DNA from: Porphyrobacter sp. IPPAS B-1204
Lineage (GTDB): Bacteria; Pseudomonadota; Alphaproteobacteria; Sphingomonadales; Sphingomonadaceae
Direction: 5' to 3'
Assembly: GCA_003724185.1 (NCBI GenBank)
Contig: RHGM01000001.1
Span: 868,001-932,000, forward strand
DNA: 64,000 bases
Part shown: one piece after another, positions 35,769-40,700 of the stretch
How the letters are laid out: each line of letters begins with the position of its first letter
Position numbering within the stretch: position 1 is the first letter of the stretch
Made by a program: the position numbers and the translations under genes
Notes under the pieces: generated by a model
What the model was told of the DNA's origin: nothing
The model's database searches: none
The model's input: only the letters and a program-made list of their open reading frames with translations

Positions 35769-36806
35769 TCAGTCCTGACCCTCCATCAGGCCATGCTTGC
35801 GGATGCAGTGACGCAGCTGATCATACGTCAGGCCGAGCGCGCGAGCGGTCTGGCGCTGGTTCCAGCGATGCTTGCCAAGGGCATGGGCAAGGATCGCGCG
35901 TTCATGCGCATCGACCGCAGCACGCAGATCCTCGATGCTGTCGAAATTCGTCGCTGCGGCAGCGGGGAGCGCAGCGGTGGCAGCGGCGCCCGAAGGCGCG
36001 GCCGCACGGCGGTGCTCTGGCGGGCGCGGGCGCCAGGGGCTGTCGAAAGGGTCAAACTGGACGTGCGCAATCGCCATGTCCGGCGCATCCCAGCGATAGA
36101 CCGCGCGCTCGATCACATTTCGCAATTCGCGCACATTGCCGGGCCAAGGGTGATCCTCCAGCGCATCCATCACGTGCGGTGCGAAGCCCGGCCAACGCTC
36201 CCAATCGAGTTCAGCCGCCATGCGCCGCCCGAAATATTCGGCCAGCACGCCGATGTCCCCTTCCCTCACCCTGAGCGGCGGGAGCGTGATGACCTCGAAA
36301 CTCAGCCGGTCGAGCAGATCGGCGCGAAACTCACCCGCCGCGGCCAGCGCGGGCAGATCGTCGTTGGTGGCCGCCACGATCCGCACATCGACCCGGATCG
36401 GGCGCGATGCGCCGATGCGCGTGATCTCGCCATATTCGACCGCACGCAGCAGGCGTTCCTGCGCGCCCATGCTGAGTGTGCCAAGCTCATCGAGGAACAG
36501 CGTTCCCCGGTCGGCTTCCTCAAAACGGCCTGCGCGAGACTTTGTGGCGCCGGTGAAAGCGCCGGCTTCGTGGCCGAACAGTTCGGCCTCGATCAGGGTT
36601 TCGGGCAGCGCTGCGCAGTTCATCGTCACCAGCGGCTCGTCCCAGCGGGTCGACAAGCGATGGAGGCGTTCGGCGATCAGTTCCTTGCCGGTGCCGCGCT
36701 CTCCGATCACCAGCACCGGGCGGTTCATCGACGCGGCGCGGCTGGCGCGTTCGACCGCGTCAAGGAAGGCCCCCGATTGCCCGATGAATTGCGTGTCCTG
36801 CTTCAC
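35769..36806 (-). CDS. pspF: Phage shock protein operon activator PspF
   Basis: 345 aa from GTG 36806 (a TTG two codons earlier is also possible). Sigma-54 activator with no receiver or sensor domain: Walker A GERGTGKE (about 35-42), the sigma-54-contact loop GAFTGAT (82-88), Walker B GTLFLDELG (101-109), WPGNVRELRN (221-230), then an Ala/Pro linker and a Fis-type helix-turn-helix (RWNQRQTARALGLTYDQLRHCIRKHGL). Such PspF proteins are held inactive by PspA. Divergent from the psp operon and its sigma-54 promoter. Confidence 0.95.
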   Translation of the reverse strand: MKQDTQFIGQSGAFLDAVERASRAASMNRPVLVIGERGTGKELIAERLHRLSTRWDEPLVTMNCAALPETLIEAELFGHEAGAFTGATKSRAGRFEEADRGTLFLDELGTLSMGAQERLLRAVEYGEITRIGASRPIRVDVRIVAATNDDLPALAAAGEFRADLLDRLSFEVITLPPLRVREGDIGVLAEYFGRRMAAELDWERWPGFAPHVMDALEDHPWPGNVRELRNVIERAVYRWDAPDMAIAHVQFDPFDSPWRPRPPEHRRAAAPSGAAATAALPAAAATNFDSIEDLRAAVDAHERAILAHALGKHRWNQRQTARALGLTYDQLRHCIRKHGLMEGQD

Positions 36807-36905: not shown

Positions 36906-36923
36906 TTGGCACAGCGGTTGCAA
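36906..36923 (+). promoter_or_regulatory. Sigma-54 (-24/-12) promoter of the psp operon
   Basis: TTGGCACAGCGGTTGCA: the -24 GG (36908-36909) and -12 GC (36920-36921) are separated by exactly ten bases and the flanking bases match the consensus TGGCAC-N5-TTGC. It lies between divergent pspF and the first psp-operon gene, 42 bases before that gene's ATG. PspF would activate it. Confidence 0.92.
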
Positions 36924-36964
36924 AATACCGGGCAAGACACCGGACACCACTTGGGAGGCCCACA

Positions 36965-37150
36965 ATGATCGACCGCAACTCCGCAAATGCCAGCTTCTGG
37001 AGTTCGAAGCTCGGGCAAGCAGCAATGGCAAGCATCGCTGCGATGACGATGATGATCCTGCTGTCGTCGCAGGTCCAGCCGGGCGCTGCCCATGCTGCGC
37101 CGATGGCCCACCCCGCTGCGGAAGCCGGCAGCATGATCGAGATTGCCTGA
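36965..37150 (+). CDS. 61-aa single-span protein, first gene of the psp operon
   Basis: ATG 36965 preceded by GGGAGGCC, a strong ribosome site, and ended by TGA one base before an in-frame ATG that leads into pspA. The peptide has a 16-residue polar start, one hydrophobic segment (about 18-35: AAMASIAAMTMMILLSSQV) and an Ala/His/Pro-rich tail. Directly downstream of the sigma-54 promoter, so it should be the first protein made on psp induction. It does not resemble PspB, C, D or G in any clear way. Confidence 0.7.
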   Translation: MIDRNSANASFWSSKLGQAAMASIAAMTMMILLSSQVQPGAAHAAPMAHPAAEAGSMIEIA

Positions 37151-37151
37151 G

Positions 37152-37439
37152 ATGGCCGACCACAATGACCCCCTCGGGCCGGAGCGCCCCATGCAGGATG
37201 TCCCCCCTGCCGATGCTGACCGCACTGCGACGCCCACGCGCGATGCGTTTGACAGCGATGCTCCGGCCCACCCCACCCGCCTGCTTTCGGCGGGACGGCT
37301 CACGCGGCTCGACGAGGAAATCGAAGCCTTGCGCCGCAGCCCGTCCCCGTCGCAATCTCGGCGCAACACCGCCCCCCCGCAGGACGAGCGAGTCGCTCCC
37401 CTCGACCGGGTCAATTCGTTTCTCGATGGAGTAGCCTTC
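37152..37439 (+). other. Open in-frame N-terminal extension of PspA (or a leader peptide)
   Basis: From ATG 37152 (one base after the previous stop) the frame is open for 96 codons straight into pspA without a stop. Codon third positions are GC-rich, as in coding DNA. The encoded part is acidic and Pro-rich and probably disordered, with a charged motif GRLTRLDEEIEALRRS that resembles the EIEALR motif of the downstream small proteins. If translated, PspA would be 325 aa rather than 229. Confidence 0.45.
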
Positions 37440-38129
37440 ATGGGCATTTTCAGCCGTACCCGCGACATCATTGCCGCCAATTTCAACGATATGCTCGACA
37501 AGGCGGATGATCCGTCGAAGATGATCCGCATGATCATCCTCGAAATGGAGGAAACCCTGGTCGAAGTCCGCGCCAGCGCGGCGCGCACCATTGCCGACCA
37601 GAAGGAAATGCACCGCCACTGCGTGAAGCTTGACCGGTTGCAGGCCGATTGGGCGGAGAAAGCCCAGCTCGCCCTGTCGAAGGACCGCGAAGACCTCGCC
37701 CGCGCGGCGCTGGTCGAAAAGAAGAAGGCCGGCGACATGGCCGATCAGCTGAAGAGCGAGATCGCTGTGCTCGACGACGCCCTGCGCGCTTACGAGGAAG
37801 ACATCGCCAAGCTGCAGCACCGCCTGCGCGAAGCCCGCAGCCGCCAGACCGCGATCGCCGCGCGTCTCGAAAGCGCCGAGAACCGCGTCAAGCTGCGCAC
37901 GCTGATGAGCACCGAACGCACCGACGAAGCACTCGCCCGATTCGACCAGCTCGAACGCCGGGTCGATTACGCCGAAGGCCGCGCCGATGCGCTGCGCATC
38001 GCTGAAGACGGTCCGCCGTCGCTCGCCGATCAGATTGCCGCACTCGGCGGGTCGGACGCGATCGACGATGAACTTGAAGCCATGAAGAAAGCGCTCGGCA
38101 AGGCCGACGACGCCAACAAGGGAGAATAG
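37440..38129 (+). CDS. pspA: Phage shock protein A
   Basis: 229 aa from ATG 37440, the usual PspA start (MGIFSRTRDIIAANFNDMLDKADDP), with GGAG eight bases upstream. ESCRT-III-like coiled-coil protein: PspF-inhibiting and membrane-binding N-terminal helices, then long charged helices to DELEAMKKALGK. It binds stressed inner membrane and releases PspF. The open frame continues 96 codons upstream (separate entry). Confidence 0.95.
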   Translation: MGIFSRTRDIIAANFNDMLDKADDPSKMIRMIILEMEETLVEVRASAARTIADQKEMHRHCVKLDRLQADWAEKAQLALSKDREDLARAALVEKKKAGDMADQLKSEIAVLDDALRAYEEDIAKLQHRLREARSRQTAIAARLESAENRVKLRTLMSTERTDEALARFDQLERRVDYAEGRADALRIAEDGPPSLADQIAALGGSDAIDDELEAMKKALGKADDANKGE

Positions 38130-38132
38130 GCC

Positions 38133-38438
38133 ATGGATCTGGAAGTCATCATGGTCGTGGGCATGCTGTTCATCGGCCTGCCCTGGGTCATCCTCCACTA
38201 CATGACCAAGTGGAAGACCGCCGCCACCATCACTTCGGACGACGAGGTGCTGCTTGAGGAACTCTACAACCTCGCCAAGCGGCTCGATGAACGCATGGAC
38301 ACGGTCGAACGGCTGGTCGCCAGTGACGACCCCGCCTTCACCCCCGCCCGCCGCCTGATCGCCGATCAGGAAAAGGACAACCAGCAACTGCGCGAGTTGG
38401 AAGCGCTGATCGCCGAGAAGAAAGGAACCCGCGCATGA
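38133..38438 (+). CDS. pspB: Phage shock protein B-like protein
   Basis: 101 aa. An N-terminal membrane span (VIMVVGMLFIGLPWVILHYM) is followed by a charged coiled coil (LLEELYNLAKRLDERMDTVERLVASDD), the classic PspB plan but with about 25 extra C-terminal residues. With PspC it normally forms the inner-membrane sensor that relieves PspA inhibition. Starts three bases after pspA; its stop overlaps the pspC ATG. Confidence 0.9.
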   Translation: MDLEVIMVVGMLFIGLPWVILHYMTKWKTAATITSDDEVLLEELYNLAKRLDERMDTVERLVASDDPAFTPARRLIADQEKDNQQLRELEALIAEKKGTRA

Positions 38439-38812
38439 ACAGCCCCCGCACCACGCTTTACCGCGACAAGCACAATGGCAAGCTGATGGGCGTCTGCGCC
38501 GGGATTGCCGACTACACCGGGGTCAACGTCTTCTGGATCCGGCTGATCGCCTTCCTGTCGATGTGGCCCACGGGCGGCGCTTCGATCTTCGCCTACCTGA
38601 TCGCCGGCTTCCTGCTGAACAAGAAGCCGCCCTATCTCTACCGCGACGAGAGCGAGCAGAAGTACTGGCAGTCCGTGCGGCAGAGCCCGAAGCGCACCGC
38701 CCGCGAAATCCGCGCCAATTTCCGCGACATCGACCGCCGCCTGGCCGCTGTCGAAACGCACTACGTCAGCAGCAACCCGCGCCTGACCGCCGAAATCGAG
38801 CGGCTGCGCTAA
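38435..38812 (+). CDS. pspC: Phage shock protein C
   Basis: 125 aa. PspC domain: LYRDKHNGKLMGVCAGIADYTGVNVFWIRLIAF followed by a hydrophobic segment and LLNKKPPYLY. The C-terminal third (EIRANFRDIDRRLAAVETHYVSSNPRLTAEIERLR) is an added coiled coil of the same type as in the following small proteins. Coupled to pspB by ATGA. Confidence 0.93.
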   Translation: MNSPRTTLYRDKHNGKLMGVCAGIADYTGVNVFWIRLIAFLSMWPTGGASIFAYLIAGFLLNKKPPYLYRDESEQKYWQSVRQSPKRTAREIRANFRDIDRRLAAVETHYVSSNPRLTAEIERLR

Positions 38813-38843
38813 GCCTGAAACCACGCAACAGGGACCGCACACT

Positions 38844-39152
38844 ATGGAAGGTTATCTTGCCCTGATGATCCCGATCATCGCCATGATGATCCCGATCGTC
38901 GCCATCTGGACGAAGCATCAGCAGAAGCTGGCGGAAATGCAGATTGGCTCCACCGCCGAACAGACCGCCGAAAAGGCTGCGCAATATGCCAGCCACATCC
39001 AGCGGCTTGAGGACCGGGTGCAGGTGCTTGAACGCATCGTCACCGACCGCGGCTACGACATCGCCACCCAGATCGAAGCGCTGCGCGACACGCGCCGCGT
39101 GGATGAAAGCGCCGGCGTGCCGCTCGGCCTCGAGACCAAGGAGCGCGTGTGA
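38844..39152 (+). CDS. PspB-like small membrane protein 1
   Basis: 102 aa. N-terminal double-length hydrophobic segment (YLALMIPIIAMMIPIVAIWTK), a charged middle, then HIQRLEDRVQVLERIVTDRGYDIATQIEALRDTRR. The tail motif (R-V-x-V-L-E-R-I-V-T-D...EIxALRD) recurs in the next genes and in the PspC tail. It looks like PspB with a longer tail; function unknown. Starts 31 bases after pspC. Confidence 0.82.
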   Translation: MEGYLALMIPIIAMMIPIVAIWTKHQQKLAEMQIGSTAEQTAEKAAQYASHIQRLEDRVQVLERIVTDRGYDIATQIEALRDTRRVDESAGVPLGLETKERV

Positions 39153-39508
39153 TGGAATTCACCGATTTTCTGCCTTATCTCGGCTGGATCATTGCCGGAG
39201 CCTTCACGCTCGGCGCCGCTGGTATCCTGACCTCGTTCCAGACCACCCGGATGAAGATCAAGAACGGCTACCCGCTGGAAGGCATGTGGGGCCAGTCCCT
39301 GAAGCCGGGTTCGGACAAGCAGACCGCCCAGCGCGTGACCCTGCTGACCCAGGAAAACGCCGAACTGCGCGCCGAACTTGGCGCGATCAAGGATCGGCTG
39401 GTGAATGTCGAGCGGATAGTCACCGACGGCGGCTATCACCTCGGCGCGGAAATCGATGCGCTGCGTGACCGGGCGCTCGAAGGGCTCAAGGACAAGGGCA
39501 AGGCGTGA
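39152..39508 (+). CDS. PspB-like small membrane protein 2
   Basis: 118 aa from ATG 39152, which overlaps the previous TGA (a GTG three bases earlier is also possible). One membrane span (FLPYLGWIIAGAFTLGAAGILTSF), a basic loop, then QENAELRAELGAIKDRLVNVERIVTDGGYHLGAEIDALRDRAL. Shares the VERIVTD...EIDALRD module with its neighbours. Probably a translationally coupled paralogue. Confidence 0.8.
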   Translation: MEFTDFLPYLGWIIAGAFTLGAAGILTSFQTTRMKIKNGYPLEGMWGQSLKPGSDKQTAQRVTLLTQENAELRAELGAIKDRLVNVERIVTDGGYHLGAEIDALRDRALEGLKDKGKA

Positions 39509-39822
39509 TGAGCGGCTGGGCCATGGTTGTCATCGTTGCGATCATCGTGTGGGGCGTGGTGGAATATGCCAAGGCCCGCGCCGGGATCGTTACCGATGAA
39601 TACGGGAACGAGAAAATCGCCCCGCGTGATGATGCCGGGTCGGCGGCCGAGCTGGAAGCCGCCCGCGCCGAACTGGCGAACCTGAAGGAACGGGTGAAGG
39701 TGCTCGAACGCATCGCCACCGACAGCAACAGCGGCGATGCGCGCGAACAGGCGCGGATTTCCGCCGAAATCGAAGCGCTGCGGGGTCTTCCTCCCGCCAG
39801 CAAGGAGGAACCGGGCCAATGA
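39508..39822 (+). CDS. PspB-like small membrane protein 3
   Basis: 104 aa from ATG 39508, overlapping the previous stop. One membrane span (WAMVVIVAIIVWGVVEY), an acidic linker (EYGNEKIAPRDD), then ELEAARAELANLKERVKVLERIATDSN and SAEIEALRG. Same coiled-coil module as the two preceding proteins. The order of the small genes and the coupling of each imply joint production in fixed ratio. Confidence 0.8.
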   Translation: MSGWAMVVIVAIIVWGVVEYAKARAGIVTDEYGNEKIAPRDDAGSAAELEAARAELANLKERVKVLERIATDSNSGDAREQARISAEIEALRGLPPASKEEPGQ

Positions 39823-40070
39823 TGTCTCCCCTTCTCGACCCTTCCGTGATCACGGCCACATCGGGCCTGATTGCGATCATCGTCATCGCGGCAGCCCTGC
39901 TGCGCGGCTGGCAGGGCTGGCTTGAGCTGAAGCGGCAGGAACTTGACCGCTCGCCCGCGCGCCCTGCCACCGACGAAGGTTCCAGCATCGGCACCGCCCG
40001 CATCGAGCTTGCCGATCTCAAGGAACGCATCCGCAAGCTGGAAGCCATCGCCAGCGGGGTGGAACTGTGA
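39819..40070 (+). CDS. PspB-like small membrane protein 4
   Basis: 83 aa. ATG 39819 lies behind AAGGAGGA and overlaps the previous stop. One membrane span (TATSGLIAIIVIAAALLRG), a basic turn, then IELADLKERIRKLEAIASGVEL, the shared LKERIxKLEAI coiled coil without the EIxALR end. Shortest of the series; closest in size to ordinary PspB. Confidence 0.78.
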   Translation: MMSPLLDPSVITATSGLIAIIVIAAALLRGWQGWLELKRQELDRSPARPATDEGSSIGTARIELADLKERIRKLEAIASGVEL

Positions 40071-40243
40071 GCGGCGCGGCAGGCACCGCCACGCAGGCGG
40101 GCATCGGCCTTGGCAGCGCGATTGCCGTGGCGATCAGCTGGAGCCTGAACAAGTCGATCATCTGGGCGATCGTCCACGGCTTCTTCGGCTGGTTCTACGT
40201 GATCTACCATGCGGTCACCCGCCCTGGCGGCCTCAGCGGGTAA
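40067..40243 (+). CDS. 58-aa small membrane protein ending the psp operon
   Basis: GTG 40067 overlaps the preceding stop (GTGA); ends at TAA 40243. Sequence features: IGLGSAIAVAISWSLNKS, then IIWAIVHGFFGWFYVIYHAV. That is a glycine/aromatic-rich hydrophobic peptide, probably two short hydrophobic helices around SLNKS. Similar small membrane peptides of unknown function occur in other bacteria, by recollection only. It has high coding-like GC at third positions. Confidence 0.65.
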   Translation: MSGAAGTATQAGIGLGSAIAVAISWSLNKSIIWAIVHGFFGWFYVIYHAVTRPGGLSG

Positions 40244-40286: not shown

Positions 40287-40700
40287 ATGCGCACCCTTTC
40301 CGATATTCTCGAAGAGTATGAATTCCTCGAAGGCGATGACCGCTACGGGTTGCTGATCGAGCTGGGCCGGGAGCTGGAACCGATGCCCGATGCGCTGAAA
40401 ACCGATGCGACTTTGGTGCGCGGGTGTTCGGCAGCGGTGTGGGTCTATCCCGCCTCGCAAGAGGAGCAGAAGCTGCACTTTCTGGCTGACAGCAACGCTG
40501 CGATCACCAAAGGCATCGTCGCCCTGGTGATCGCCGCAGTGCAGGATCGGCCCGCGCAAGAAGTTGCGCAGATGGACGTGATGGGCGCGCTCGCCCCGTT
40601 TGATCTCAAGAGCCAGCTATCAAGCAACCGCACCCAAGGCGTGCCGAACATGATTGCGCTGGTGAAGGAACACGCCGCAAGGCTCGCGGCAGGCGCGTGA
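40287..40700 (+). CDS. sufE: Cysteine desulfuration protein SufE
   Basis: 137 aa from ATG 40287. SufE/CsdE fold: LSDILEEYEFLEGDDRYGLLIELGRELEPMP, catalytic persulfide cysteine in LVRGCSAAVWVYP (about residue 51), then FLADSNAAITKGIVALVIAAVQ. It accepts sulfur from the SufS desulfurase for Fe-S cluster assembly. Its stop overlaps a small membrane gene. Confidence 0.93.
   Translation: MRTLSDILEEYEFLEGDDRYGLLIELGRELEPMPDALKTDATLVRGCSAAVWVYPASQEEQKLHFLADSNAAITKGIVALVIAAVQDRPAQEVAQMDVMGALAPFDLKSQLSSNRTQGVPNMIALVKEHAARLAAGA

What the first reader, a model, noticed from the sequence alone, without database searches (positions are those of the whole stretch)
36906..40243. Expanded psp operon: pspABC followed by four PspB-like paralogues and two tiny membrane proteins
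The PspF/sigma-54 locus continues well past pspC with genes 38844, 39152, 39508, 39819 and 40067, mostly joined by overlapping stop/start codons. Four of them, plus the tail of PspC, end in the same coiled-coil module (RVxVLERIVTD...EIxALR). PspB itself is a single small protein in E. coli. A graded series of membrane-anchored coiled coils suggests a multi-subunit PspB/C-like sensor or scaffold specific to this group. I do not know a description of this arrangement.
Basis: partly seen in the sequence, partly recalled or inferred. Interest (0 to 1): 0.75.

Follow-up and report, generated by a model that had tools for sequence, protein, structure and literature searches.

The report
Expanded array of PspB/PspC-like stress proteins
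In every sampled member of one sphingomonad family, the operon that protects the inner membrane from damage carries an extra row of small membrane proteins, each joining its own anchor to a tail related to those of the known stress sensors PspB and PspC, which suggests a many-part version of a sensor known elsewhere as a pair.

Summary
The array is real. After pspF/σ54-pspABC come three TM-plus-coil proteins (orf1-3) ending in one shared ~31-residue tail, a fourth with half of it (orf4) and an unrelated 58-aa membrane protein (orf5). All 59 family (Sphingomonadaceae-type) psp loci examined, in 33 genera, carry 1-7 such genes downstream of pspC; of 19 loci in other families of the order 3 do, one each. 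In 30 genomes 126 of 129 tail-profile matches lie within 4 kb of pspA. Paralogue classes largely keep their order; 241 of 242 proteins match another genome better than a sibling, so most copies are old; dN/dS is below 0.5. The tail aligns end-to-end with that family's PspC tail (hhalign 95%) and over half its length with PspB (73-91%), yet none of the members scanned reaches a curated PspB or PspC cut-off. Related TM-plus-tail genes occur away from psp in other Pseudomonadota. [quoted passage not shown] I found no description of the ordered array. Best reading: accessory PspBC subunits that present several tails to the PspC/PspA switch. Function untested.

The parts
35769..36806 (-). pspF, σ54 enhancer-binding activator, divergent from the operon (the GTG start is a choice of my gene caller)
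   Evidence: TIGR02974 478.5 bits, cut-off 443.55, on the frame read from 36824; tblastn match in 58 of 59 primary family loci
36907..36922 (+). σ54-type promoter element TGGCAC-N5-TTGCA
   Evidence: sequence; score of at least 11 of 12 in 57 of 59 loci, against 5 of 590 shuffles; a stricter pattern finds it in 36 of 59 and in none of 59 inside the array
36965..37150 (+). small membrane protein of 61 aa between promoter and pspA
   Evidence: tblastn in 20 loci including the window
37440..38129 (+). pspA
   Evidence: TIGR02977 277.2 bits, cut-off 242.95
38133..38438 (+). pspB
   Evidence: TIGR02976 83.8 bits, cut-off 51.7; PF06667 3.4e-20
38435..38812 (+). pspC, tail ends ...SSNPRLTAEIERLR
   Evidence: TIGR02978 126.4 bits, cut-off 104; PspC tails of the family against the paralogue tails, hhalign 95.2%
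38844..39152 (+). orf1: one N-terminal TM, coil, full tail (class 2)
   Evidence: tail HMM 8e-19; TIGR02976 1.4e-7, below cut-off; AF2 model one helix 2-89, low pTM
39149..39508 (+). orf2: TM, NGYPLEGxWGQ juxtamembrane motif, coil, full tail (class 0; ATG at 39152 is the alternative start)
   Evidence: tail HMM 5e-16; 51 of the 52 class-0 proteins (29 genera) form one clade, support 0.997; AF2 helices 8-39 and 56-117, low confidence
39505..39822 (+). orf3: TM, RAGIVTDEYGN motif, coil, full tail with a 7-residue insertion (class 8)
   Evidence: tail HMM 4e-11
39819..40070 (+). orf4: TM, RGWQGWLELKRQELDR, half tail (LADLKERIRKLEAIASGVEL)
   Evidence: tblastn in 54 of 59 primary loci; no Pfam or NCBIfam hit
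40067..40243 (+). orf5: 58-aa membrane protein, no tail, patchy
   Evidence: 14 of 59 primary loci; besides the window, 2 of 142 genomes of the class, in other families
40287..40700 (+). sufE-like gene (name recalled), downstream boundary of the array in the window
   Evidence: tblastn match on the same strand in 55 of 59 primary loci (distance to the array not measured)

Best explanation
An enlarged membrane-sensor layer of the PspF/σ54 Psp response. Each paralogue is a single-TM anchor with a cytoplasmic helix that ends in a PspC-type tail. Shown: operon position, shared tail, class-specific N-parts, old and largely ordered paralogues under purifying selection. Inferred: the tails hetero-oligomerise with the PspB/PspC tails and, as the PspC C-terminal domain does in Yersinia, take part in the switch by which PspA is drawn off PspF to the membrane; the differing TM and juxtamembrane segments let the complex answer to different membrane disturbances, or set its threshold.
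For: 59 of 59 family loci have 1-7 tail genes, all downstream of the pspC match; 126 of 129 profile matches in 30 genomes are psp-linked; a σ54 element lies upstream in 57 of 59 and the strict pattern occurs inside the array in 0 of 59. Paralogues in one operon share the tail (mean identity 0.49, shuffled 0.21) but hardly the N-part (0.24, shuffled 0.18), while within a class the N-part is kept (0.37-0.55): constant output end, distinct input ends. Profile relation of the tail to the family's PspC tail 95.2% and to PspB 72.7-90.6%, against at most 5.7% for the reversed and PspA-coil controls of those pairs. dN/dS 0.05-0.43 for orf1-orf5 against three congeners. In Yersinia the PspC C-terminal cytoplasmic domain binds PspA in the on state, and PspBC form a complex (PMC5596341 passages); in E. 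coli PspB self-associates and binds PspC, and the PspC leucine zipper is needed for PspA interaction (PMC3068692 passages).
Against: No interaction, expression or mutant data for any array gene. Copy number varies from 1 to 7 and classes are missing in many genomes. Outside the family, TM-plus-tail proteins live away from psp, so the tail need not serve PspA; these orphans are nearer PspB (47.7-77.6%) than PspC (17.2-36.8%). PspC tails of other families match the paralogue tail at only 45.3%, and PspB and PspC tails hardly match each other (at most 7.7%). In E. coli the PspC zipper region was assigned to the periplasm and its topology is disputed (PMC3068692 passages). AF2 models are low-confidence monomer rods (pTM 0.33 and 0.27).
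Confidence: 0.5

Rival explanations
1. Effector scaffold: the extra anchors do not signal but, once induced, coat and stiffen the inner membrane or tether PspA rings, as PspBC alone can counter mislocalised secretins.
For: All lie downstream in the presumed induced operon; PspBC have an effector role separate from regulation in Yersinia (PMC5596341 passages).
Against: Class-specific N-parts kept for a long time suggest more than bulk tethering.
Confidence: 0.25
2. Constructive neutral drift: tandem copies of one orphan TM-plus-tail gene became mutually dependent subunits without new function.
For: Copy number and class content vary among genomes; several classes are not clean clades in the tree.
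Against: Only 1 of 242 proteins has its best match inside its own operon; order is largely kept and dN/dS is well below 1.
Confidence: 0.12
3. Passenger genes: small membrane proteins with another task that merely use the psp promoter, as sufE beside them may.
For: The tail family exists outside psp, also fused to a zinc-ribbon-like protein; a sufE-like gene is near in 55 of 59 loci.
Against: Tail similarity to PspC and PspB themselves and linkage of 126 of 129 matches.
Confidence: 0.13

Closest known systems
PspB (PF06667 / TIGR02976)
   Same: psp operon, small, single N-terminal TM, cytoplasmic coil, ERxxxLERI-like motif
   Different: orf1 scores below both curated cut-offs (16.0 of 25.6; 31.7 of 51.7 bits); neither model lists orf2 or orf3 at E up to 1 (another PspB model, PRK09458, lists orf3 at 0.19); the paralogues go on into TD...EIxxLR, which PspB lacks
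PspC C-terminal tail (TIGR02978, positions about 80-121)
   Same: whole tail aligns to its end, hhalign 95.2% with PspC of the same family of bacteria; weak TIGR02978 hits in 9 of 24 members scanned
   Different: no PspC domain (PF04024) hit in orf1-orf4; one TM at the N-terminus
[quoted passage not shown] 2024, PMC11237479)
   Same: probably the same phenomenon in outline; the example accession could not be opened here
   Different: section 17 and the passages read name no array, copy number, classes, order or family-wide distribution
TM-plus-tail proteins of 69-135 aa in other Pseudomonadota (no family name found)
   Same: same architecture and tail, hhalign 99.1% for seven of them
   Different: away from psp in the 11 loci read (no psp gene recognised by eye in about 3.1 kb each); single, or paired in tandem in two related genomes (G376, G768)

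Membership tests
PspB | curated score cut-off of PF06667 or TIGR02976 | tested here: not met
   orf1 16.0/25.6 and 31.7/51.7 bits; orf2 and orf3 not listed by either model at E up to 1. Of 24 members 8 match TIGR02976 (best E 1.4e-7, which is orf1) and 2 match PF06667 (best E 0.0007) at E up to 0.01 (bit scores shown for orf1 only, so for the rest this is judged from E-values)
PspB | single N-terminal TM followed by a cytoplasmic helix | tested here: met
   one hydrophobic stretch with K/R after it in orf1-orf4; AF2 helices for orf1 and orf2, low confidence; topology not measured
PspB | encoded in the psp operon | tested here: met
   tail genes downstream of pspC in 59 of 59 family loci; co-transcription not tested
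PspB | binds PspC and is needed for induction | not testable with these tools
   bench experiment
PspC | PspC domain PF04024 | tested here: not met
   no hit in orf1-orf4 at E up to 1
PspC | C-terminal tail profile | tested here: met
   hhalign 95.2% with the family's PspC tails, 38 columns in register to the last residue, reversed-tail control 5.7%; only 45.3% with PspC tails of other families
PspC | tail binds PspA in the on state | not testable with these tools
   stated for Yersinia (passages)
PspD / PspG / PspE | curated family hit (that the libraries hold these models is recalled) | tested here: not met
   no such hit for orf1-orf5 among Pfam and NCBIfam results up to E 1

The most novel reading that the evidence does not exclude
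The tail is a portable plug for the Psp switch, and Sphingomonadaceae run a combinatorial PspBC: a hetero-oligomer of up to ten tail-bearing subunits (PspB, PspC and up to eight paralogues) in which each paralogue contributes its own TM and juxtamembrane sensor and competes for PspC or PspA, so that one σ54 response integrates several kinds of membrane damage. TM-plus-tail proteins elsewhere would then be unrecognised Psp partners.
Probability: 0.3. Interest if true: 0.8.

Novelty: new variant of a known kind. Interest (0 to 1): 0.55.

Why it matters
What PspB and PspC sense, and how their tails choose between each other and PspA, is to my knowledge still open in the Psp response. A family in which evolution has kept a series of different anchors on one shared tail separates input from output and offers natural variants for testing it.

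Tried and rejected
Rejected: 'generic coiled coil by chance' (0 of 4406 reversed and 0 of 4406 shuffled ORFs; PspA-coil and reversed controls of the tail low). Rejected: recent local duplication (1 of 242). Rejected: scattered genes (126 of 129 linked; counted by reading the table against the pspA positions). Rejected: orf5 as a member of the tail family (no tail; relatives elsewhere).

Led nowhere: solved-structure search (12 hits, best E 0.036, a potassium channel); AF2 of orf1 and orf2 (rods, low pTM), so no fold search was run; paper searches for Novosphingobium plus pspB (0 papers), Sphingomonas plus phage shock plus pspA (5, none on this by title), Erythrobacter plus phage shock protein (2; in the passages of PMC9241875 psp genes are only noted as present), 'PspB-like' with psp operon or small membrane protein (2, unrelated by title), and sphingomonad plus PspC (1, PMC5443232, where a table column names PspC).

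Errors made and mended in the work: one search translated pspA one base out of frame (redone); the PspC set of the family was empty, so its pspC_f1 rows are void (redone); pspC and orf4 were read out of frame (redone); one search counted one ORF twice in L057 and in L059, and its orf4 pattern missed some copies (use). The gene starts were chosen with a preference for -1/-4 overlaps, so its 121 of 233 overlaps are not an unbiased count. One protein (L067_1) was cut to its last 110 residues before clustering. The pattern used for pspC recognised it in only part of the loci (50); one search finds a pspC match in 59 of 59 and a pspB match in 58 of 59 (L090 lacks pspB and, pspF; its pspC match was not looked at further).

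Limits: the tail HMM was built from the same loci that it was then counted in. The class search (11 of 385, five of them family members) scored at most 18 candidates per genome, so its low count is a lower bound. The 80 regions were chosen: the 58 family genomes, 19 of its 22 other-family genomes (3 had no PspA match), and 3 second loci; a second PspA match in G094 and the weak second matches were not fetched. dN/dS used three congeners only. The family and genus labels are the tool's numbers; the names come.
Full report
What is there. The window holds a canonical Psp locus: pspF on the minus strand, a σ54-type element at 36907-36922, a 61-aa membrane protein, then pspA, pspB and pspC, the four psp genes each above an NCBIfam cut-off. 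Five further genes follow on the same strand: orf1 38844-39152, orf2 39149-39508, orf3 39505-39822, orf4 39819-40070 and orf5 40067-40243, with overlapping stop/start codons from orf1 to orf5; a sufE-like gene (name recalled) comes next. In the scan with the orf2 alignment the nearest records are a Sphingomonadales MAG (93% identity) and Porphyrobacter sp. AAP60 (91%), followed by further Porphyrobacter/Erythrobacter records, so the window comes from that part of the sphingomonads.

The shared module. orf1, orf2 and orf3 end in RVxVLERIVTD...EIxALR. An HMM of 150 such 31-residue tails from psp loci finds 245 hits at E<1e-4 among 4406 ORFs of the same loci and none in those ORFs reversed or shuffled. 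In the window's 1153 six-frame segments it ranks orf1, orf2, orf3, then orf4 (0.037), and then the frames of pspB, pspA and pspC (0.13-0.27). orf4 keeps the first half of the tail; orf5 keeps none.

Distribution and linkage. PspA was found in 77 of 80 genomes searched: all 58 of the window's family and 19 of 22 from other families of the order. With the window, 59 of 59 family loci, in 33 genera, carry 1-7 tail genes, 242 in all, every one downstream of the pspC match; 3 of 19 other-family loci carry one each, all in one family. In 30 family genomes a tail profile gives 129 matches: 126 within 4 kb of the primary pspA, one at a second psp locus, and two in unlinked zinc-ribbon-like proteins (one search read). 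By position, the weakest of these matches (E 1e-5 to 9e-4) are PspC tails. In 80 loci from named records of the genome collection 2-8 tail genes were counted, some cut by contig ends; Erythrobacter sp. NAP1 (L210) and E. longus (L227) have 7. In the phylum sample 47 of 398 genomes match, 28 of them outside the family. The 11 loci outside the family that I read (4 from the same class, 7 from elsewhere in the phylum) hold TM-plus-tail genes, with no psp gene recognised by eye in about 3.1 kb each. In the class sample 11 of 385 match, five of them family members, a lower bound.

Age and constraint. Clustering on the part before the tail gives classes in a largely constant order: TAEKAAQYA type (window orf1), then HGYxLEDEWGG, then NGYPLExxWG (window orf2), then variable middle classes, then a last class (window orf3), orf4, sometimes orf5, then sufE. 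Of the 52 orf2-class proteins (29 genera) 51 form one clade with support 0.997; the other classes range from clean to poor (best-clade F 0.63-1.00, two supports as low as 0.04 and 0.27). For 241 of 242 proteins the best match is in another genome, and for 219 of 242 the best cross-genome match is of the same class. dN/dS against three congeners is 0.05-0.43 for orf1-orf3, 0.14-0.25 for orf4 and 0.07-0.43 for orf5. Within an operon, paralogues share the tail (0.49 against 0.21 shuffled) and hardly the rest (0.24 against 0.18); within a class both are kept (0.54-0.80 and 0.37-0.55).

Relation to PspB and PspC. In profile comparison the tail aligns with the C-terminal tail of the family's own PspC over 38 columns to the last residue (95.2%), with PspB over 19-23 columns (72.7% and 90.6%), with the tails of seven orphan proteins at 99.1%, and with PspC of other families at 45.3%. 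Reversed-profile and PspA-coil controls that involve the tail lie at or below 8.0%. Controls of the other profiles against their own reversals went higher: PspC 10.2% and 13.0%, PspB 27.5%, so the PspB link is the weaker one. PspB and PspC tails match each other at 7.7% or less, and the orphans lie nearer PspB (47.7%, 77.6%) than PspC (17.2%, 36.8%). Of 24 members scanned against NCBIfam, PspC is matched by 9 and PspB by 8 at E up to 0.01, more than any other family; judged by the best E-values none reaches a cut-off. The proteins thus combine a PspB-like build with a PspC-like tail, and are filed as neither.

Mechanism. In Yersinia PspB and PspC form a membrane complex; [quoted passage not shown] In E. 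coli PspB self-associates and binds PspC, and the PspC leucine zipper is needed for PspA interaction, though that region was assigned to the periplasm and two topologies are proposed (PMC3068692, passages). The 2015 and 2016 papers on the PspB/PspC domain switch were seen only as titles in a reference list. From this I infer that the extra tails enter the same switch. In Zymomonas, a sphingomonad (placement recalled), ZMO1062-ZMO1065 (called pspD, pspA, pspB, pspC) rise in xylose media (PMC8645129, passages) and pspA, pspB and pspC under ethanol (PMC3495753, passages), so the family's Psp response is inducible; genes after pspC were not named in the passages seen.

Prior knowledge. Ravi et al. 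2024 (PMC11237479; [quoted passage not shown] I recall but could not check that the accession is from an Erythrobacter. The passages of Popp et al. 2022 (PMC9239133) do not mention it. Beyond that, searches gave no paper in whose listing or passages I saw the ordered array described; supplements could not be opened.

Verdict. A real, old, family-wide and largely ordered expansion of the Psp membrane component, partly foreshadowed in print, with an untested but well-motivated function.

Noticed in passing
L244:4773-5165 and L245:4770-5159: The same tail ends a ~130-aa protein with an N-terminal CPKC zinc-ribbon-like domain (DUF6487, 23.6 and 22.5 bits, cut-off 24) upstream of an IMP-dehydrogenase-like gene (name recalled): a soluble-looking use of the tail, away from psp.
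   Followed up: partly
window 36965-37150: A 61-aa membrane protein lies between the σ54 site and pspA; tblastn finds it in 20 loci, and by gene number its position corresponds to ZMO1062, called pspD in Zymomonas papers.
   Followed up: partly
L091, L092, L112: Second psp loci in three family genomes show, in my gene calls, pspA and a PspC but no pspB, and no tail genes; two of them keep orf4.
   Followed up: no
L103, L109, L111: In another family of the order a single tail gene follows pspC; in L109 and L111 an extra short PspC without a tail lies between them.
   Followed up: no
window 40067-40243; L247, L248: orf5-like small membrane proteins also occur in two genomes of other Alphaproteobacteria families and are patchy in the psp operons.
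   Followed up: partly
L156-L163, L118, L152, L155: TM-plus-tail proteins without a family name in other Pseudomonadota, several beside a tadA-like deaminase gene (name recalled).
   Followed up: partly
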